Position numbers and translations under genes: made by a program | NCBI GenBank assembly: GCA_012032575.1 | Contig: JAAUSP010000232.1 | Coordinates: forward strand, 1-10,623 | Direction: 5' to 3' | DNA: 10,623 nucleotides | Source: Anaerolineales bacterium | GTDB taxonomy: Bacteria; Chloroflexota; Anaerolineae; 4572-78; J111 | Shown: piece after piece, positions 3,463-10,623 of the stretch | How the letters are laid out: every line of letters starts with the position of its first letter | Numbering within the stretch: position 1 is the stretch's first letter | Notes under the pieces: generated by a model | What the model saw: the letters and a program-made list of their open reading frames with translations, nothing else | Databases searched by the model: none | What the model was told of the DNA's origin: nothing

Positions 3463-4823
3463 ATGATTGATATTCTACCGGGCACTGTGCCCGACCGATT
3501 ACAGCCCCATAATGTCGAAGCTGAAGAAGCGGTTCTGGGCGCACTGTTGATTGATACCGACGCGATTATCCGTATTGCGACCTTTTTGCAGCCGCTTGAT
3601 TTTTATGTAGAGCGCCATAGCTGGATTTTCGAGGCCATTCGTGACCTGCACGAGCGGCGTGAACCGGCTGACCTGGTAACGCTGACCGACGAGTTGGAAC
3701 GCCGGGGTCAAATGGTTGAAATTGGCGGGGCGGCCTATCTGACCAGCCTGATGAACGCCACGCCTACCTCGATCCACGTTGAGTTTTACGCCCGCATTGT
3801 CGAGCGCACGGCGGTTTTACGCCGGCTGATTGACGCTGCCGGACAGATTGCCCGGCTGGCCTACGAAGGCAGCGACGACGCCGACGAAGTGGTGGATCGG
3901 GCCGAGGAGATTATTTTTGGTGTCGCCGCCCGACGGGTGGACCGGGATTTACGTCCCATCCGCCAGATTCTCGACCAATATCACGACCGGGTGGAGTATC
4001 TGTGGAACCATCGCGGCGAGATTGTCGGCATCCCCACCGGCCTGTCTGACCTGGATAAACTGCTGGGCGGCTTGCAGCGCTCGGATGTGATTATTCTGGC
4101 GGGCCGGCCTGGTATGGGTAAAACGTCGCTGGCTTTGAGTATGGCCCTCCATGCCGCCCGCCGCTGGCAAAAACGGATTGCCCTGTTTAGCCTGGAAATG
4201 AGCGATGAGCAGTTGGTCCAGCGCCTCATCTCCGCCGAAACCGGCATTGACAGCCAGCGCCTGCGCCTGGGCGACATTAAAGACAACGAGTGGCCCACCT
4301 TTATGCAAGCCACCACCCTCCTTTCCAATACCTTTATTTTTATTGACGACACCCCGGCCATTTCAGCCCTGGAACTGCGGACCAAAGCCCGCCGCCTCCA
4401 CGCCGAACACGGCCTGGATATGATTATCATAGATTACCTGCAACTCATGCGCGGCGATTCGCGCAGCGAAAACCGGCAGCAGGAAATCAGCTACATTTCC
4501 CGCTCGATCAAGGCCCTGGCCCGCGAGCTGAACGTGCCCATTCTGGCCCTCAGCCAGTTGTCCCGCCAGGTCGAATCGCGCCACGACAAGCGCCCGATGC
4601 TCTCGGATTTGAGAGAAAGTGCTCGATCGAGCAGGATGCCGACATCGTGATGTTTGTCTACCGCGACGACGTGTATAACCCCGACACCGAATTTCCCAAT
4701 ATTGCCGAGATTATTGTCAGCAAACATCGTTCCGGCCCCACCGGCATCTTCTCCGTTTACTTCAAAAAGCATCTGGCCCAGTTTGTAGATTTGGAAGTTA
4801 AAAGACAAGCGATGGAGTATTAG
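3463..4823 (+). CDS. dnaB: Replicative DNA helicase DnaB, with a one-base frameshift
   Basis: This is the hexameric 5'-3' helicase that unwinds DNA at the replication fork and recruits primase. The start at 3463 ([29 protein letters not shown]) matches the usual N-terminal collar domain; upstream codons are not family-like. GGGA at 3451-3454 may serve as ribosome site. The RecA-type motor domain shows Walker [10 protein letters not shown] (about residues 214-222), Walker [10 protein letters not shown] (D near 324) and the DNA-loop motif [10 protein letters not shown] (about 360-370). Immediately after SDLRES the frame is lost at 4620-4621. One inserted G there restores [17 protein letters not shown], and the protein then runs to [12 protein letters not shown] and a TAG at 4821-4823, giving 453 residues, the standard length. 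Because dnaB is essential, a missing base in the assembly is more likely than inactivation. No intein is present, although DnaB is a common intein site. DnaD-like and DnaI-like genes follow. Confidence 0.95.
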
Positions 4824-4830
4824 GGAATCA

Positions 4831-4889
4831 GCGAATGATGAATGGCGAATAAAGAACTTCTTTTCGCCATTCGCCATTCGCCATTCATC
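4831..4889. repeat. Palindromic repeat of GCGAAT/ATTCGCCATTC type, copy A
   Basis: The bases 4831-4849 pair with 4863-4881 in perfect register around a centre near 4856, with a two-base mismatch, and an extra partial ATTCGCCATTC unit lies to 4889. The core unit, GAATGGCGAAT, recurs in the second copy after the dnaD-like gene. The element lies between dnaB and the dnaD-like ATG at 4894 and occupies the place where a ribosome binding site would be. It could act as a hairpin in the transcript or be a dispersed repeat. Confidence 0.8.
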
Positions 4890-5593: not shown

Positions 5594-5653
5594 ATGGCGA
5601 ATAGCGAATGGCGAATGAAAACTCTGTATTCGCCATTCGTCATTCGCCATTCG
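5594..5653. repeat. Palindromic repeat of GCGAAT/ATTCGCCATTC type, copy B
   Basis: Bases 5594-5616 pair with 5628-5650 in register (23 positions, one mismatch and one G-T pair) around an 11-base loop. This is a stronger hairpin than copy A and shares its core unit. It begins two bases after the dnaD-like stop and ends about 20 bases before the ATG of the dnaI-like gene. The open frame through it adds residues such as FAIRHSPF to the apparent N-terminus of the next gene; these are repeat-derived. Confidence 0.85.
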
Positions 5654-5673: not shown

Positions 5674-7086
5674 ATGGACAGATTAGACGAAATTCTCAAT
5701 CGCAACACAAATTACTGGCCTGATGAGCGCCCCAGCGGAAGTAATTCTGAAATTTTGTTGCCCGCCGATGAGGAGTGGCTGTGCCCTGTTTGCGGCGGCA
5801 CCGGCTATTTGCGCCAGGATGTGCCGGTCGGTCATCCGAACTTTGGCAAACTGGCCCCCTGCCAATGCCGCTTGCAGGAACAGGAAAGCAAGCGGCTGAA
5901 TCAGCTTCGGATCATCAGCAACATGGACAAGATGACTCGCTACACTTTTGATAAATTTGTCCCCGATGGTTATGGGCTGACCGATGAGCGGCGGCGCAAC
6001 CTGCACATGGCCTATGACATGGCCTACAACTTTGCCAACCAGCCCGAAGGCTGGCTGATTTTGCTGGGCGGCTACGGCTGTGGCAAATCGCATCTGGCCG
6101 CTGCCATAGGGAATCACGCCATCAGCCAGGGCAAGCCGGCCTTGTTTGTGGTGGTACCCGACCTGCTCGATCACCTGCGGGCAGCTTATGGGCCTAACAG
6201 CGGGACCTCTTATGACCAGCGCTTTGAAGAGATTCGCAATGCTTCCCTGCTGATTCTGGACGATTTGGGCGCGCATAGTTCGACGCCCTGGGCGCAGGAA
6301 AAGCTGTTCCAGTTGTTCAACTATCGTTACAATGCCCAACTACCCACCGTTGTCACCTCCAACCACGAGTTGGAAGAGATTGACATTCGCATCCGTTCGC
6401 GCATGGTGGACCCCGACCTGGCGCAAATTATCAAAATTCTGGCCCCTGATTTCCGCCAAATTGGGGTGGCCCAGGGCAGTTCGGAACTGTCCAGCCTGTC
6501 GCTGCACGCCGATCAGACCTTTGAGAGTTTTAGCTTGCGCGAAGGTGAGTTAGACCCGGCCAAAGCCGAAAACCTCAAGCGGGCCTTTGAACGCGCCCGC
6601 AACTACGCCGTCCGTCCCCAGGATTGGATTGTTTTTACCGGCACCTACGGCTGCGGCAAAACGCACCTGTCCGCTTCCATCGCCAACGAAGTAGCCAAGC
6701 GGGGCGAGCCGGCCCTGTTCGTGGTCGTGCCCGACCTGCTCGACCATCTCCGCGCCGCCTTCAATCCCAACAGCCTGACCCCCTACGACAAACGCTTCGA
6801 CGAAGTGCGCCGGGCCTCGCTGCTGGTGCTGGACGATTTGGGCACCGAAAGCGCCACCCCCTGGGCCGAGGAAAAACTGTACCAGCTTTTCAACCATCGC
6901 TACAACGGTCGCCTGCCGACCATCATCACCATGGCCAAGGATATTGACCTCAAACCGCGTCTCAAATCGCTTTTTTTGGATGTGGGCCGCTGCACCACCT
7001 TTGAAATTATGGCCCCCAGCTATCGCGGCCTGCCCGCTCGCGGCGCGGCCAATAGGGCCAGAGTGCCGGTCAGACGGGTGCGCTGA
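5674..7086 (+). CDS. DnaI/DnaC-type helicase-loader ATPase with two tandem AAA+ modules
   Basis: This resembles the AAA+ loaders (DnaC, DnaI, IstB group) that open or hold the DnaB ring, but it carries the ATPase twice. The start is put at 5674 (MDRLDEILNRNTNYW) because the longer frame only translates a repeat. Residues 37-65 hold C37-x2-C40 and C63-x-C65, a likely zinc ribbon as in DnaI. Module 1 has Walker A GGYGCGKSHL (K138), Walker B LLILDDLG and RIRSRMVD with R243. Module 2 repeats this about 191 residues on: Walker A GTYGCGKTHL (K329), Walker B LLVLDDLG. Strings such as PALFVVVPDLLDHLRAA are identical in both, and the DNA is similar too, so it is an internal duplication. In module 2 the position of R243 is L433 (PRLKSLFLD), so this copy may lack an arginine contact. 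The protein is 470 residues, against about 250-310 for usual loaders. It closes the dnaB-dnaD cluster. Confidence 0.88.
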   Translation: MDRLDEILNRNTNYWPDERPSGSNSEILLPADEEWLCPVCGGTGYLRQDVPVGHPNFGKLAPCQCRLQEQESKRLNQLRIISNMDKMTRYTFDKFVPDGYGLTDERRRNLHMAYDMAYNFANQPEGWLILLGGYGCGKSHLAAAIGNHAISQGKPALFVVVPDLLDHLRAAYGPNSGTSYDQRFEEIRNASLLILDDLGAHSSTPWAQEKLFQLFNYRYNAQLPTVVTSNHELEEIDIRIRSRMVDPDLAQIIKILAPDFRQIGVAQGSSELSSLSLHADQTFESFSLREGELDPAKAENLKRAFERARNYAVRPQDWIVFTGTYGCGKTHLSASIANEVAKRGEPALFVVVPDLLDHLRAAFNPNSLTPYDKRFDEVRRASLLVLDDLGTESATPWAEEKLYQLFNHRYNGRLPTIITMAKDIDLKPRLKSLFLDVGRCTTFEIMAPSYRGLPARGAANRARVPVRRVR

Positions 7087-7217: not shown

Positions 7218-7240
7218 TTCTCGATGCGGTCGAAATGACA
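7218..7240. repeat. Partial copy of the TGTCATTTCGAG repeat
   Basis: CGAAATGACA at 7231-7240 is the inverted end of the same repeat, preceded by TTCTCGATGCGG, which resembles its middle. Its last base is the A of the JAB start codon, so the coding region begins exactly at the repeat edge. No Shine-Dalgarno site is visible. Confidence 0.65.
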
Positions 7241-7668
7241 TGAAAATCACCGATGCCCAACTCAAACAAATCTATGCTCACGCCAAAGAGGCGTATCCGG
7301 CGGAATGTTGCGGCTTTTTGCTGGGCAGTTTTGATAACGGCGGCCTGGTGCGCGAAGTCCGCCGGGCCACCAATCAGAACACCGAGCGTACCGACCGTTT
7401 TGTCATCAGCGCCGAGGAGTTCGGGCAGGTCCAGTTCGCCGCCGACGAGGCCGGAGTGGACATCATCGGCATCTATCACTCCCACCCCGATTGGCCCGCC
7501 ATCCCCTCTCAAACCGATATGGACAGCGCCTTTGAGGATGTCTATTATCTGATTGCTTCCGTTCATGAAGGCAAACCGCTCAACACTCAAATCTGGCGGC
7601 TGCTCGACGACGGGTTGCGCCGTTTTGAGTGGGTGGCGCTAGAGATTGTGGACGAGAAGGGGCTGTAG
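7240..7668 (+). CDS. JAB/JAMM (M67-type) metallopeptidase
   Basis: This 142-residue protein is a single JAB/MPN+ domain, a zinc-dependent isopeptidase fold. The JAMM signature is complete: E22 in the AECCGFLLG segment, then H80-S-H82 and S90-x2-D93 in YHSHPDWPAIPSQTDMD. Bacterial stand-alone members usually cut a C-terminal extension from small sulfur carriers of the ThiS/MoaD type or act near cysteine synthesis; which applies here is not shown, as no ThiF/MoeB or carrier gene lies in the window. The start is the ATG at 7240 (MKITDAQLKQIYAHAKEAYP), chosen because the longer frame upstream only translates repeats. It is flanked on both sides by TGTCATTTCGAG elements, so any partner genes may have been separated from it. 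Confidence 0.93.
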   Translation: MKITDAQLKQIYAHAKEAYPAECCGFLLGSFDNGGLVREVRRATNQNTERTDRFVISAEEFGQVQFAADEAGVDIIGIYHSHPDWPAIPSQTDMDSAFEDVYYLIASVHEGKPLNTQIWRLLDDGLRRFEWVALEIVDEKGL

Positions 7669-7676
7669 ATAGAGTC

Positions 7677-7698
7677 TAAGGCTAAGGCTGAGGCTAAG
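7677..7698. repeat. Short tandem hexamer array (TAAGGC)n
   Basis: Three and a half hexamer units (TAAGGC, TAAGGC, TGAGGC, TAAG) follow the JAB stop codon by about 8 bases and lead straight into the next palindromic repeat. It is too short to call a satellite and shows no coding content. Confidence 0.7.
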
Positions 7699-7704
7699 AA
7701 ATCA

Positions 7705-7740
7705 TGTCATTTCGAGTGAAGCGAAGCGGAACGAGAAATC
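7705..7740. repeat. Third copy of the TGTCATTTCGAG...GAGAAATC repeat
   Basis: TGTCATTTCGAG at 7705-7716 is followed by GAAGCGAAGCGG and GAGAAATC at 7733-7740, the complete short form of the element. It ends three bases before the GTG start of the HigA-like gene. It also marks the point where base composition changes from GC-rich to AT-rich. Confidence 0.85.
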
Positions 7741-7743
7741 CCT

Positions 7744-8085
7744 GTGTTATACACTGAAGAGCATTACACCCAGGCTTTAGAAACTTTGGATAATTTGTTG
7801 GAGATTGTGGGTGAAGATGAAAATCATCCATTCTATGAACTGTTAGATACTTTAGGTATAATGATAGCAGCCTATGAAGAAATTCATCATTCTGTTGATG
7901 ATGTGGTGAGTAGGGATGTGTTAAGATTTCTCATGGATGAACACCACTTGACCCTTTCCTTTTTACCCGAATTGGGTGTTCCAGAAACCGTATCAGAAAT
8001 ACTGATCGGGAAACATAAATTGAATGTGACGCAGATTCGCGCCTTGTCTGAACATTTTGGGTTATCTCCAGTTACCTTTCTTTAA
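7744..8085 (+). CDS. HigA-like antitoxin / HTH regulator (orphan)
   Basis: This 113-residue protein resembles HigA-type antitoxins (COG5499-like), in which an N-terminal helical part binds the toxin and a C-terminal XRE-type helix-turn-helix binds its own promoter. The helix-turn-helix is about residues 65-110 (LTLSFLPELGVPETVSEILIG followed by LNVTQIRALSEHFGLSPVTF), and LIGKHKLNVTQIRAL is the characteristic stretch. The helical N-terminus (YTQALETLDNLLEIV, LLDTLGIMIAAYEEIHH) is typical. The only in-frame start is a GTG lying three bases after the repeat at 7705-7740, with an in-frame TGA at 7717-7719. The true N-terminus may therefore have been cut by repeat insertion, or the gene is a remnant. 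No HigB-type toxin gene is present on either side. Codons are visibly more AT-rich than in the dnaB cluster. Confidence 0.8.
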   Translation: MLYTEEHYTQALETLDNLLEIVGEDENHPFYELLDTLGIMIAAYEEIHHSVDDVVSRDVLRFLMDEHHLTLSFLPELGVPETVSEILIGKHKLNVTQIRALSEHFGLSPVTFL

Positions 8086-8150
8086 ACCGCATTTTGGCTG
8101 GCCGAGGGAAGTGCTGCATTATTTCGAGGGGGTAAGGCAGGATATTGTGG

Positions 8151-9022
8151 ATGAAAACGTACTTTTGGCTGGTACTTCTATTTCTCATTTTGCTTCTGCC
8201 GTTGCGTCTCTTCTCTGCCGTCCCCACTTTTGCTCAGGAAGAAAGTAAAGCTCCACCGGCCCAAATTCAACTTACCGTTGACCGCACGACTCTTAATGTA
8301 GGTGACTCGAGCCAGGCTATATTAATCTTGCGTAATACTTCGCCTTATACCTTGACCGGCATCGCCGCTCAATTTCAGGGTACGGCCTTCAAAACTCTCA
8401 ATTTAACCAACTTACCCGACACTTTATCTCCTTACAGTAGCACCCAAGCCGAATATACTCTCCAAAGCCAGGTTGCCGGTTCTCACAATGTTACTTTTGC
8501 GGTACAATATTCTTGGGATGATCCAAACATAGGTTTGGTTCATCAATGGATTGAAACGGTGTCGGCTACTAAGTTTGAGGTAGCCAAGGTTATTCCCTGG
8601 TGGTTTAATTTTGACTGGCCGGCTTATCTAATTCCGCTTATCATCGGCCTTGTAGTTGGCTGGGTAGGAGCATGGTTTGCGGAATGGCGAAAGCAGCGGC
8701 AAGAAGAAAAACAACAAGAGGAACAAGTTGCCGGTATTACTCTGGCAATGTTGCAAGCGATTCGTAAAGGGATAGAACAAAAAGAGGCGGTTCGCTTTAA
8801 CCTGTGGGAAGAGGCTGTTGTGAAGGGTAATCTCTATCCCGCGCTTCATCGCTTGGGACGACGGATAGGCAAGCCAGAGTTATCTAAACGACTGGCTGAG
8901 TTGTCAATTACCTTGATTGATTATAATGATCGGCAAGGTAAAAAATTTTCACAGAAAAACTTACAACGGATTTGGTTAATGAGTTGACAGACTTGATTAG
9001 GGTGATTGAAAGTAGAGACTAG
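8151..9022 (+). CDS. Signal-peptide membrane protein with an Ig-like ectodomain and cytoplasmic helical tail, one-base frameshift
   Basis: I do not recognise a named family. The start at 8151 (MKTYFWLVLLFLILLLP) is preferred over a TTG two codons upstream and has an AGG about 9 bases before it. Residues 1-28 are a signal peptide with likely cleavage after A28. Residues about 35-140 look like an immunoglobulin-type beta domain resembling CARDB-like modules (IQLTVDRTTLNVGDSSQAILILRN...). One membrane helix (about 155-178, WPAYLIPLIIGLVVGWVGAWF) follows, then a charged coiled coil (RKQRQEEKQQEE) and a helical cytoplasmic tail. The frame runs out as IWLMS, but one extra base in the A6/T4 stretch at 8940-8949 gives IFTEKLTTDLVNELTDLIRVIESRD and a stop at 9020-9022, a plausible 290-residue protein. 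The STAND ATPase gene begins 87 bases on, so a shared function is possible. Confidence 0.72.
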
Positions 9023-9095
9023 TGCATTATCCAGAGTTAAAATTCGGGTTTTGCGGTGGAAATAGCCCGAATTTTTAGCATAGACGATGCACTAG
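9019..9095. repeat. 77-base imperfect palindrome (MITE-like or hairpin element)
   Basis: The element is symmetric about position 9057 with no register shift. The 9-base ends CTAGTGCAT (9019-9027) and ATGCACTAG (9087-9095) are perfect inverted copies, and AAAATTCGGG (9039-9048) is inverted as CCCGAATTTT (9066-9075). The intervening positions pair partly. The TA at each outer edge, inside CTAG, matches the target choice described for IS630-type elements, so a small non-autonomous element is plausible. The left end overlaps the inferred TAG stop of the membrane protein, and the element ends 14 bases before the STAND ATG. As a hairpin it would separate the two genes. Confidence 0.8.
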
Positions 9096-9109
9096 GTAGG
9101 AAATTTATA

Positions 9110-10570
9110 ATGTTTAGGATAAAAGATCAGTTTGCTAAGTTACAAAATCCCTATACTTTCGGCGTACCTGTCCAGGGTAAGGACAATTTCTTTGGGCGTG
9201 AGAAAGAATTACAGCTTATTTTTGATACCCTTGAAAATGTACCTCGTGGACAAAAGCAAGATTTGGTTGTGATGGGGCCACGCCGGATTGGAAAATCTTC
9301 ATTACTTTATCGTCTCGTTGACTTGTTAACCCCAAGAAAAGATTTTGTTTCAGTATATATAGATGTTCAGAGTATTAAACCTAGAACAACTCGATTATTG
9401 TTCTTTGAAGTAATGCAAAAAATTGAAGATGGTTATAGCAAAAAAGGAATATGGTCTAGACATTTGCCGTCTTTTGTGACACTTAAACCAGATAATATTC
9501 CTGTAGATTTAGAATTTTATACCTTTAAAAAGGATATGATTCGGCTGAATGAAGTGATAGTTTCTCAAAATTTACCGCGTTTAGTTTTGATGTTTGATGA
9601 GGTTGAACTGCTTATAGAATTCGGTGGGGCGGATATTTTGAGCTGGTTTCGAGGCCTTATTCAAAGTATGCTTTATATCATTTTTGTTGTATCCGGGGCT
9701 GAACAACTCTATTCGCTAACTCAAGATTATGGCTCGCCTTTTTACAATATCTTTAAGACAATTGAATTACATCCCTTAACTCCTAGGGCTGCCAGAAAGT
9801 TAATAGAGGAACCGGCGAACCAAATTGGGATGCAAATTCCGTCGACTGAGGTTGACAAAATCCTGCGTTATGCCGGTAACAGCCCTTACTTCATTCAAGG
9901 CATGGCCCATTATTTAGTTGAGACCTTGAATCGACAAAAGCGATACGAAGTTTACCCAGAAGATGTAGCTGAAGTTATCAAACAGAGTGTTGAATACCTC
10001 TCGCCTCAATTTGCTTATGTTTGGGGCGGAGCATCTCAAGTACAACGAATTATTCTGTATGCCCTGGCTAAAAAAGGACATCCTCGAACTGCTGAGGCTT
10101 TGATTGCTGGTTTGCCTCAATTAAAGAGTATTATCCAGTCTCGACAACAACAACAAGAAACATTTGACAACCTAGTTCAGCAGCAAATCCTTAAATTAGA
10201 TAATAATCTCTATTGGTTTGTAGTTTTGTTATTTGTTGACTGGATTTTAGCCAAAGTAGATGATGAAAACATTATCAATCTGGCTACTGAGTCCGAGGTT
10301 ATCCATATTCGGCGCGGTTACAATATTCGTGCCATTCGTCAACTCTTAACTCTAGCATTCTCAGATGAAGAGCTACGGGGAATTGTTTTTGACTATCCTG
10401 AATTTCGTCCTGTATATGAACAACTCTCACATGACACAGGCAAATCTCGAGTTATTCAATATTTGATTGAATATGCCGAGCGGAAGGAATTACTTGATCA
10501 ATTACTTGACTCTATAAAGAAACAAAACCCGAAGCAATACGCTACCTTTGAGAACGATTTGTATCAGTAA
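9110..10570 (+). CDS. STAND-like AAA ATPase with C-terminal EAD-like domain
   Basis: A 486-residue signalling ATPase. The start at 9110 (MFRIKDQFAKLQNPY) has AGG at 9098-9100 with a 9-base gap, while upstream codons to 9056 lie in the palindrome. The NTPase opens with NPYTFGVPVQGKDNFFGREKE, has Walker A GPRRIGKSS (residues 56-64), Walker B RLVLMFDEVE (D163/E164), a sensor-like strand IIFVVSGAE, and a helical lid with LTPRAARKLIEEPANQ. A winged-helix-like part follows (about 305-395). Residues about 400-486 (IRAIRQLLTLAFSDEELRGIVFDYPEFRPVYEQL to ENDLYQ) resemble the small effector-associated domains (EAD) that pair STAND proteins with effectors carrying the same domain. STAND proteins are switches for bacterial immune or cell-death responses. 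No effector domain is in this protein, so a partner would be expected. The EAD assignment is by eye. The gene is clearly AT-rich. Confidence 0.85.
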   Translation: MFRIKDQFAKLQNPYTFGVPVQGKDNFFGREKELQLIFDTLENVPRGQKQDLVVMGPRRIGKSSLLYRLVDLLTPRKDFVSVYIDVQSIKPRTTRLLFFEVMQKIEDGYSKKGIWSRHLPSFVTLKPDNIPVDLEFYTFKKDMIRLNEVIVSQNLPRLVLMFDEVELLIEFGGADILSWFRGLIQSMLYIIFVVSGAEQLYSLTQDYGSPFYNIFKTIELHPLTPRAARKLIEEPANQIGMQIPSTEVDKILRYAGNSPYFIQGMAHYLVETLNRQKRYEVYPEDVAEVIKQSVEYLSPQFAYVWGGASQVQRIILYALAKKGHPRTAEALIAGLPQLKSIIQSRQQQQETFDNLVQQQILKLDNNLYWFVVLLFVDWILAKVDDENIINLATESEVIHIRRGYNIRAIRQLLTLAFSDEELRGIVFDYPEFRPVYEQLSHDTGKSRVIQYLIEYAERKELLDQLLDSIKKQNPKQYATFENDLYQ

Positions 10571-10596
10571 ACCTGACTTAGTCAAAGGAAATTCCT

Positions 10597-10623
10597 ATGT
10601 CCCCTTACAAACCGATTCCCGAC
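10597..10623 (+). CDS. Start of a downstream gene, cut by the window edge
   Basis: An ATG 26 bases after the STAND stop, with AAAGGA at 10584-10589 giving a 7-base spacing, opens MSPYKPIPD and runs off the end. Close spacing and a good ribosome site suggest it belongs to the same operon and may encode the EAD partner or a second ATPase. Nine codons are too few to identify it. Confidence 0.5.

What the first reader, a model, noticed from the sequence alone, without database searches (positions are those of the whole stretch)
7744..10623. AT-rich cluster of HigA-like regulator, membrane Ig-domain protein and STAND-EAD ATPase as a candidate conflict module
The region right of the repeat at 7705-7740 is compositionally different: in a counted 60-base line, 9361-9420 has 18 G/C, versus 40 in 6721-6780. 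It groups an orphan antitoxin-type HTH protein, a secreted-then-anchored one-TM protein with a cytoplasmic tail, and a STAND-like NTPase whose C-terminal domain looks like an EAD. STAND-EAD proteins are known parts of bacterial immunity and cell-death networks. The combination with this membrane protein is not one I recognise. A next gene starts 26 bases after the ATPase. The linkage to defence is inferred.
Basis: partly seen in the sequence, partly recalled or inferred. Interest (0 to 1): 0.75.

Follow-up and report, generated by a model that had tools for sequence, protein, structure and literature searches.

The report
Membrane receptor paired with STAND switch
A rare pair of genes from an uncultured Chloroflexota bacterium encodes an outward-facing membrane protein and a switch protein of the kind used in bacterial and plant immunity; it looks like a self-contained alarm whose output end is swapped between relatives, but its defence role is inferred and not tested.

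Summary
The window comes from a close relative of a 9.4 Mb Chloroflexota MAG (DnaB 93% identical). The HigA-like gene does not belong: a close relative has JAB, the same repeat, the HigA-like gene, then ThiF, with no insertion. The newcomer is the membrane-STAND segment after HigA (8086 to at least 10570).

The two genes are linked elsewhere. Of 14 membrane homologs on contigs of 4 kb or more, 11 share an exact contig length with an ATPase homolog; 0.01 would be expected. Across ATPase relatives the end domains are exchanged (EAD7, EAD1, TIR, nucleoside phosphorylase, bDLD1), as in conflict systems. The STAND protein has no repeat sensor of its own, so I propose that the membrane protein senses or anchors in trans, and that EAD7 recruits effectors. 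Two close relatives carry 22 and 16 EAD7 matches; in the first, some sit on TIR, CHAT or phosphorylase proteins.

Gene order on other contigs, the third gene and any anti-phage activity remain unseen. New variant of a known kind.

The parts
7240..7668 (+). JAB/MPN (Prok-JAB) gene, resident flank
   Evidence: Pfam Prok-JAB E 1.3e-23; found beside ThiF in 14 of 20 ThiF loci of relatives
7701..7740 (+). dispersed repeat, resident, not the border of the insertion
   Evidence: 7702-7739 identical at the same place in G001 and G011
7744..8085 (+). HigA-like (COG5499-type, label recalled) orphan antitoxin-type gene, GTG start; resident, not part of the module
   Evidence: PADLOC PD-Lambda-2_B E 5.6e-14; 83% identical copy between JAB and ThiF in G011
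8086..8150 (+). left junction of the inserted segment; 8123-8165 resembles the 3' end of a JAB gene
   Evidence: HigA match to G011 ends at 8085; 43-base match to the JAB tail of G011, 0 of 2000 mononucleotide shuffles as good; weaker against other JAB tails
8151..8987 (+). membrane protein gene: signal peptide, Ig-like ectodomain, one TM, charged/coiled segment, conserved helical cytoplasmic tail; frame break near 8963, family-type C terminus continues in another frame to a stop at 9020-9022
   Evidence: 22 homologs besides itself, no Pfam family; model; frame break
8259..8585 (+). Ig-like ectodomain (residues 37-145)
8616..8678 (+). predicted transmembrane helix, followed by RKQRQ (type I topology, inferred)
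   Evidence: helix 156-209; hydropathy
9019..9095 (.). intergenic palindrome between the two genes; dispersed, MITE-like element
   Evidence: arms 30 nt, 77% complementary; fold z -5.6; matches in 3 of 21 relatives
9110..10570 (+). STAND NTPase with C-terminal EAD7; no sensor repeats recognised
   Evidence: Pfam ATPase_2 1.7e-14, nSTAND1 7.2e-10, EAD7 7.3e-9; model and fold matches
10334..10531 (+). EAD7 (residues 409-474)
   Evidence: 35.7 bits against a cut-off of 32; helical 406-483 in the model
10597..10623 (+). start of the next gene (nine codons, MSPYKPIPD), unidentified; window ends here
   Evidence: sequence; no match to its coding pattern in 61 and 396 genomes

Best explanation
It is an accessory two-gene (perhaps larger) receptor-switch module. 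The membrane protein is exported, held by one helix, shows an Ig-like domain outside and a conserved helical tail inside. The STAND NTPase is a bare switch: nucleotide-binding, helical and winged-helix parts, then EAD7, with none of the sensor repeats that NLR/Avs proteins carry. I propose that the membrane protein is the missing sensor and scaffold in trans: an envelope-side event (a phage, a contact toxin, or envelope damage) is passed through the tail to the NTPase, which exchanges nucleotide and oligomerises under the membrane; the clustered EAD7 domains then recruit EAD7-tagged effectors encoded elsewhere (TIR, CHAT protease, phosphorylase) and stop or kill the cell. In some relatives the effector is fused directly to the NTPase. 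Shown by computation: the domains, the same-contig linkage, the end-domain exchange, the insertion site, the EAD7 repertoires of relatives. Inferred: topology, contact between the two proteins, direction of signalling, trigger, outcome.
For: Domains and models. Linkage: 11 of 14 membrane homologs on contigs of at least 4 kb share an exact contig length with one of 52 ATPase homologs, and each of the 11 also shares a source database with it; mean 0.01 coincidences when lengths are shifted by 1-50. Three of these contigs are 4.8-5.9 kb, which forces near-adjacency. Parallel divergence of the partners: r 0.79 for 9 EAD/effector-type pairs (16 of 20000 re-pairings as high), r 0.36 for all 12 (783 of 20000). 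End exchange in 36 of the 97 ATPase homologs, at E 1e-3: EAD7 24, EAD1 5, TIR 2, PNP 2, bDLD1 2. EAD7 matches: 22 in G001 (12 over the cut-off), 16 in G011 (9 over), none in 14 control genomes. Among 20 of the 22 EAD7 proteins of G001: 4 with TIR, 1 CHAT plus receiver, 1 phosphorylase, 4 other STAND/NACHT/NB-ARC. Insertion into a conserved JAB-ThiF locus. EADs as recruiting adaptors: PMC7159879 (passages) and PMC8195603 (passages and section 7).
Against: No contig other than the window was read, so order and strand elsewhere are unseen. Three of the 14 membrane homologs have no matching ATPase contig, and only 11 of the 37 ATPases on contigs of at least 4 kb match. The window ATPase's closest sister (P0004, 67% identical) sits on a 68.6 kb contig with no membrane homolog found, so the NTPase may do without it. 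Correlated divergence also arises from linkage alone, and is weak with all 12 pairs. EAD7 is below its curated cut-off in several linked ATPases (P0003 25.8, P0017 19.1, P0028 27.2 bits). In the protein scan it is also below it in the five TIR- or phosphorylase-bearing proteins of G001 (24-30.5 bits), of which three pass it in the genome search. The membrane tail is not recognisably an EAD (hhalign probability 5.5%). The window's own effectors are unknown, because its genome is not held. The membrane gene is out of frame near its end. Model pTM is 0.45 and 0.52, so domain arrangement is uncertain.
Confidence: 0.55

Rival explanations
1. The membrane protein is the anchor or the membrane-acting output, not the sensor: the NTPase detects an intracellular signal and uses the partner to place or open something at the membrane.
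For: 16 of the family's 33 invariant residues lie in the tail from residue 195 on (KGNLYP region), which fits a docking surface; nothing shows ligand binding by the Ig domain.
Against: A signal peptide plus a large, confidently folded outer domain is more than an anchor needs; one TM of modest hydropathy (over 1.6 in 11 of 23 members, fragments included) is a poor pore; output domains already sit on the NTPase in relatives.
Confidence: 0.22
2. The module is a signalling switch for envelope stress or multicellular development, not for immunity.
Against: Swapped TIR, phosphorylase, Death-like and EAD ends and no match in any of the 25 order genomes searched (no positive control) are typical of conflict genes.
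Confidence: 0.13
3. A decaying or chance cluster: the membrane gene is broken and the grouping has no meaning.
For: Frame break near 8963 against the family.
Against: The same contig has similar breaks in the DnaB gene near 4623 and in a glycosyltransferase gene between 1122 and 1260, which points to assembly errors; the ATPase is intact; linkage recurs on 11 other contigs.
Confidence: 0.06
4. The first reader's three-gene cluster, with the HigA-like protein as its regulator.
For: Adjacency and shared low GC.
Against: G011 has the HigA-like gene in the same place without the other two genes, directly before ThiF.
Confidence: 0.04

Closest known systems
EAD-linked STAND-FGS counter-invader systems (Kaur et al. 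2021, PMC8195603, section 7 read)
   Same: STAND NTPase of the nSTAND1, MNS or NACHT clade joined to an exchangeable EAD (EAD1, 2, 7, 8) or effector (TIR, peptidase, kinase)
   Different: There the EAD or effector is N-terminal and a lectin-like FGS domain is on the same protein. Here the EAD is C-terminal, no sensor domain is recognised, and a separate membrane Ig protein is the linked partner
Avs / bNACHT antiviral STAND proteins (described in PMC10907252, passages read)
   Different: Not tripartite: no N-terminal effector, no C-terminal repeat sensor
MoxR-vWA/VMAP ternary systems and the EAD hub (Kaur et al. 2020, PMC7159879, passages read)
   Same: EAD7 as a small helical adaptor that recruits effectors
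   Different: No MoxR, vWA or VMAP gene seen in the window proteins scanned
Archaeal STAND-type ATPases 2qen (Pyrococcus abyssi) and 2fna (SSO1545); 'MNS clade' is a recalled label
   Different: Chains of about 350 residues, too short for an added EAD; function not known to me (recalled)
DGR-diversified STAND sensors of multicellular bacteria (PMC10907252, passages read)
   Same: STAND plus EAD; some targets predicted to face the periplasm
   Different: Sensor is a C-type-lectin domain on the same protein; no Ig partner in the passages I read
TRAP translocon subunits and other Ig-type sandwiches (fold only)
   Same: Ig-like domain followed by a helix (8b5l_v, Foldseek E 2.1e-6; aligned 34-185); that TRAP subunits are single-pass is recalled
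   Different: 13% identity, no sequence relation shown; a fold is not a function

Membership tests
STAND NTPase | Walker A and Walker B motifs | tested here: met
   GPRRIGKSS (56-64) invariant except P57 (90% or more), and D163-E164 invariant, in 36 sequences; motif names recalled
STAND NTPase | AAA+ NBD followed by helical and winged-helix domains | tested here: met
EAD-coupled conflict system | an EAD fused to the core NTPase | tested here: met
   EAD7 35.7 bits, cut-off 32
EAD-coupled conflict system | further copies of the same EAD fused to effectors in the same genome | tested here: inconclusive
   own genome not held; matches in close relatives G001 (22) and G011 (16)
EAD-coupled conflict system | cognate EAD in an adjacent gene | tested here: inconclusive
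   only nine codons of the next gene are visible
Avs / bNACHT | N-terminal effector, central STAND, C-terminal repeat sensor | tested here: not met
   486 aa: STAND then EAD7 only; PADLOC: no Avs model at E 1
STAND-FGS system | FGS (FGE-sulfatase, PF03781) domain on the STAND protein | tested here: not met
   no such Pfam match in the protein at E 1
VMAP/iSTAND ternary system | MoxR, vWA and VMAP/iSTAND genes together | tested here: inconclusive
   Pfam of six window proteins shows none; the right side is cut off
HigBA toxin-antitoxin | toxin gene next to the HigA-type gene | tested here: not met
   JAB upstream and the membrane gene downstream; in G011 JAB and ThiF
Any named antiphage system | demonstrated protection | not testable with these tools
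   needs an experiment

The most novel reading that the evidence does not exclude
A split NLR with an outward-looking receptor: a new family of type I membrane Ig proteins serves as the constant sensor for a bare STAND switch whose output end is freely exchanged (EAD7, bDLD1, TIR, phosphorylase, unnamed helical hairpins) and can plug into a genome-wide EAD7 effector pool.
Probability: 0.4. Interest if true: 0.78.

Novelty: new variant of a known kind. Interest (0 to 1): 0.6.

Why it matters
Characterised antiviral STAND proteins usually carry their own sensor, which binds phage proteins (PMC10907252, passages). A membrane partner with an outer Ig domain would put detection at the cell surface and separate receptor, switch and effector into exchangeable pieces. 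It also gives a concrete entry point to the idea that EAD domains form a shared recruiting hub in large-genome bacteria: one defined switch, one defined adaptor, and a short list of EAD7-tagged candidate effectors in the relatives to test.

Tried and rejected
Rejected: HigA as part of the module; the repeat as the border; a JAB-like reading of the junction as a live gene (its frames are broken); the membrane tail as an EAD. Next gene as ThiF: not proven either way. ThiF begins MTNNNISRYLRQ in G001 and MTNPNFSRYLRQ in G011 and is 91% identical between them; the window reads MSPYKPIPD, which does not fit; coding patterns of it found nothing in 61 and 396 genomes. My first peptide comparison of the junction used the wrong frame and was replaced by a nucleotide test with mononucleotide shuffles.

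Led nowhere: own genome not held; membrane profile in genome contigs (28 pattern stretches, 0 confirmed) and viral contigs (13 and 0); ATPase profile in viral contigs (197 and 0). ATPase profile in genome contigs: 349 stretches, 178 relatives, the best 80 kept, all 32% identity or less; a local membrane-profile search of the 104 loci then held hit none of these 80, only L104 (E 3e-7 whole, 0.0013 best stretch). L104 is the one weak genome match (E 7e-4, profile 2-144 only), which I did not accept as a family member. I did not examine the architectures of the 80 loci beyond ORF lengths. Membrane protein in plasmids and phages: none. The inserted DNA with its left flank (7690-10623) in plasmids: none. 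ATPase: 3 distant plasmid hits (21-28% identity), no phage hit. Membrane profile in genomes: 0 of 61, 1 of 396, 0 of 25, 0 of 400; these sets overlap, at most 6 candidates a genome were scored, and the tool warns that an empty answer without a positive control shows nothing. Rfam: none at gathering scores. In the structure searches a fifth or more of the rows spanned only 33-147 and 10-396, so the EAD7 and the membrane tail were barely tested; that says nothing about their novelty. Two of the large protein searches scored only the candidates sharing most words, so homolog counts are lower bounds.

Rows dropped: 3 fragments (P0114, P0118, P0119) and later P0120 are not in A1 (19 of 23); A2, A3 and A4 hold 36, 32 and 31 of 97 ATPases; 44 distant ATPases (P0054-P0097) and the window's own pair were left out; P0008, P0041, P0051 and P0054-P0097 out of the tree; P0035 (truncated) and the window's own protein (scanned) out; two of the 22 EAD7 loci out; L118 out of the gap list.
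Full report
WHAT THE WINDOW IS. The 10,623-base window lies in an uncultured Chloroflexota bacterium. Its own genome is not held, but its DnaB is 93% identical to that of G001, the genome behind locus L002, whose public record is MAG H5_CFX7, 'Anaerolineales bacterium'. G011 is another close relative (JAB 91.5% identical).

THE OBSERVATION. The right-hand part is AT-rich (per gene GC 0.38 HigA-like, 0.45 membrane, 0.38 ATPase, against 0.49-0.62 to the left). The ATPase 9110-10570 matches ATPase_2, AAA_16 and nSTAND1, and its C terminus matches EAD7 with 35.7 bits against a cut-off of 32. The gene at 7744-8085 is HigA-like. The gene at 8151-8987 has no Pfam family above its cut-off (a sub-threshold NCBIfam choice_anch_D match, E 1.9e-5, 25.1 bits against 45).

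WHAT WAS INSERTED. JAB was found in 14 of 20 ThiF loci of relatives; of the 13 whose gap I measured, 8 have 5-49 bases between the two, and L110, L111 and L120 have 211, 210 and 119, which I did not examine. In G001 the gap is 174 bases and holds the same repeat as the window; in G011 it is 419 and holds the repeat plus a HigA-like gene 83% identical to the window's, whose stop lies one base before the ThiF start. The simplest order of events, inferred from these three genomes, is repeat first, then the HigA-like gene, then the membrane-STAND segment after 8085; a loss of the HigA-like gene in G001 is not excluded. Near the junction, 8123-8165 resembles the 3' end of a JAB gene (43 bases; of 8 JAB tails tested, 0-2 of 2000 mononucleotide shuffles were as good for five, 21 for the window's own, 54 and 138 for two others), perhaps a trace of the recombination or of the module's former neighbour. 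The right end lies beyond the window: the next nine codons do not resemble the ThiF start of G001 or G011.

THE MEMBRANE PROTEIN. A single-sequence search finds 21 homologs besides itself, and a profile search adds one more, in a database of 5.8 billion sequences; none has a Pfam domain in the table (a lower bound). The model (mean pLDDT 79.5, pTM 0.45) has an N-terminal helix, an Ig-like sandwich at 37-145 with high confidence, a long helix from 156 that begins as the presumed TM, and a helical tail. Fold matches are generic Ig-type sandwiches. Of 33 invariant residues, 16 lie in the tail from residue 195 on and 6 in the WPxYLIPL stretch at the start of the TM. The window copy is out of frame for its last ~20 codons. 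DnaB (near 4623) and a glycosyltransferase gene (between 1122 and 1260) on the same contig are broken in the same way, so I take this as probable assembly error.

THE STAND PROTEIN. The model (mean pLDDT 82.0, pTM 0.52) shows NBD, helical and winged-helix parts to about residue 395 and a helical EAD7 at 406-483. Matches are archaeal STAND-type ATPases, MalT, origin-recognition proteins and plant NLRs. The protein ends with EAD7. No TPR, WD40, LRR or FGS part was recognised, which in Avs, bNACHT and STAND-FGS proteins is the sensor.

LINKAGE. I could not read the contigs of the homologs, so I compared exact contig lengths. Of 22 membrane homologs, 14 are on contigs of at least 4 kb; 11 of these share their length with one of 52 ATPase homologs, against a mean of 0.01 when lengths are shifted, and each matching pair also shares a source. 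None of the 8 on shorter contigs (1.3-2.4 kb) does. On contigs of 4.8-5.9 kb the genes must be near neighbours. Counter-evidence: only 11 of the 37 ATPases on contigs of at least 4 kb match. In the tree of 50 ATPases a group of 16 (support 94/73, not strong) has no linked member; the label needs 8 changes (shuffled mean 10.8, 9 of 500 as low). The window ATPase's sister P0004 lies on a 68.6 kb contig without a detected partner. So the membrane protein goes with the ATPase more than the reverse. Pairwise distances correlate for the 9 EAD/effector-type pairs (r 0.79, 16 of 20000) and weakly for all 12 (r 0.36, 783 of 20000), because three ATPases with helical ends (P0043, P0048, P0049) are distant while their membrane partners are not. 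That suggests the partner has met more than one switch type.

EXCHANGED ENDS. Of 36 ATPases, 24 match EAD7, 5 EAD1, 2 TIR, 2 phosphorylase, 2 bDLD1 (E 1e-3, not the curated cut-off). Among ATPases linked to the membrane protein (window, 10 of the 11 others): EAD7 over its cut-off in the window, P0002 and P0010 (the last with TIR); EAD7 below it in P0003 (25.8 bits), P0017 (19.1), P0028 (27.2, with phosphorylase) and P0023 (19.3, with bDLD1 over its cut-off); TIR in P0019; no known end domain in P0043, P0048, P0049.

EAD7 IN THE LINEAGE. G001 has 22 EAD7 matches (12 over the cut-off), G011 16 (9 over), G015 12; 11 of 25 genomes of the order have at least one at E 1e-3 and 7 over the cut-off, and 0 of 14 control genomes. 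Of 20 EAD7 regions of G001 scanned, 4 carry TIR (one of these with FGE), 1 CHAT plus receiver, 1 phosphorylase, 1 NACHT, 2 NB-ARC-TPR, 1 nSTAND1, 1 LRR-Roc-COR, 1 FGE without TIR, 1 pentapeptide, 1 SH3, 5 nothing else at E 1e-4, and 1 only kinase (its EAD7 was not recovered by the protein scan). In that protein scan EAD7 passes its cut-off in 9 of the 20, the CHAT protein among them, but not in the TIR and phosphorylase proteins (24-30.5 bits; three of those five pass it in the genome search), so their EAD7 assignment is weaker. Kaur et al. (PMC7159879, passages; PMC8195603, passages and section 7) describe EADs as homotypic adaptors, place EAD7 among those that recruit effectors, and report EAD7 fused to STAND proteins. 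I found no mention there of an Ig-domain membrane partner ('ig-like' 0 hits in both; 'immunoglobulin' in PMC8195603 only in an oyster protein and the reference list). Seven full-text searches listed no paper whose title or shown abstract describes such a pair. The library holds only open-licence papers, and of most I saw listings only.

HOW IT PROBABLY WORKS. Shown by computation: domains, same-contig linkage, exchange, insertion. Inferred: the outer domain senses, the tail docks the NTPase, ATP-driven assembly clusters EAD7, and EAD7 effectors act. The most useful doubt is whether the membrane protein is sensor or anchor; the sequences cannot decide.

VERDICT. A real, rare, accessory module; a new variant of EAD-coupled STAND systems, with a membrane family that has no Pfam entry as its linked partner. 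Pairing: high confidence. Receptor-switch mechanism: about 0.55.

Noticed in passing
window 9019-9095; L145-L152: Palindrome of about 77 bases between the two genes, strongly folding (z -5.6), with matches in G015, G018 and G025; in G018 the two arms lie further apart. Looks like a small mobile or REP-type element.
   Followed up: partly
window about 4623, 1122-1260 and 8963: Three frame breaks against relatives, one in DnaB, which suggests indel errors in this assembly.
   Followed up: partly
window 8123-8165: Possible trace of a JAB gene 3' end at the left junction, overlapping the start of the membrane gene.
   Followed up: partly
window 4831-4886 and 5594-5652: Two copies of a GCGAATGGCGAAT-type palindromic repeat on either side of the DnaB_2/DnaD-like gene.
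   Followed up: no
window 5674-7083: DnaC/IstB-like protein with two matched stretches of the IstB_IS21 AAA domain, as if internally duplicated; 88% identical in G001.
   Followed up: no
P0043, P0048, P0049: Repeated helical-looking segments at the ends of these ATPases, no Pfam name; candidate unnamed adaptor domains.
   Followed up: no
L126, L127, L128, L138, L139: EAD7 proteins of G001 whose other part matches nothing in Pfam at E 1e-4; candidate new effectors.
   Followed up: no
G001, G011, G015: The relatives with 9.0-9.8 Mb genomes carry 12-22 EAD7 matches each; the other 22 genomes of the order that were searched have 0-5.
   Followed up: no
L106 (G011), 2534-2860: Orphan HigA-like gene between JAB and ThiF with no toxin beside it; probably a second, older insertion at the same place.
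   Followed up: partly
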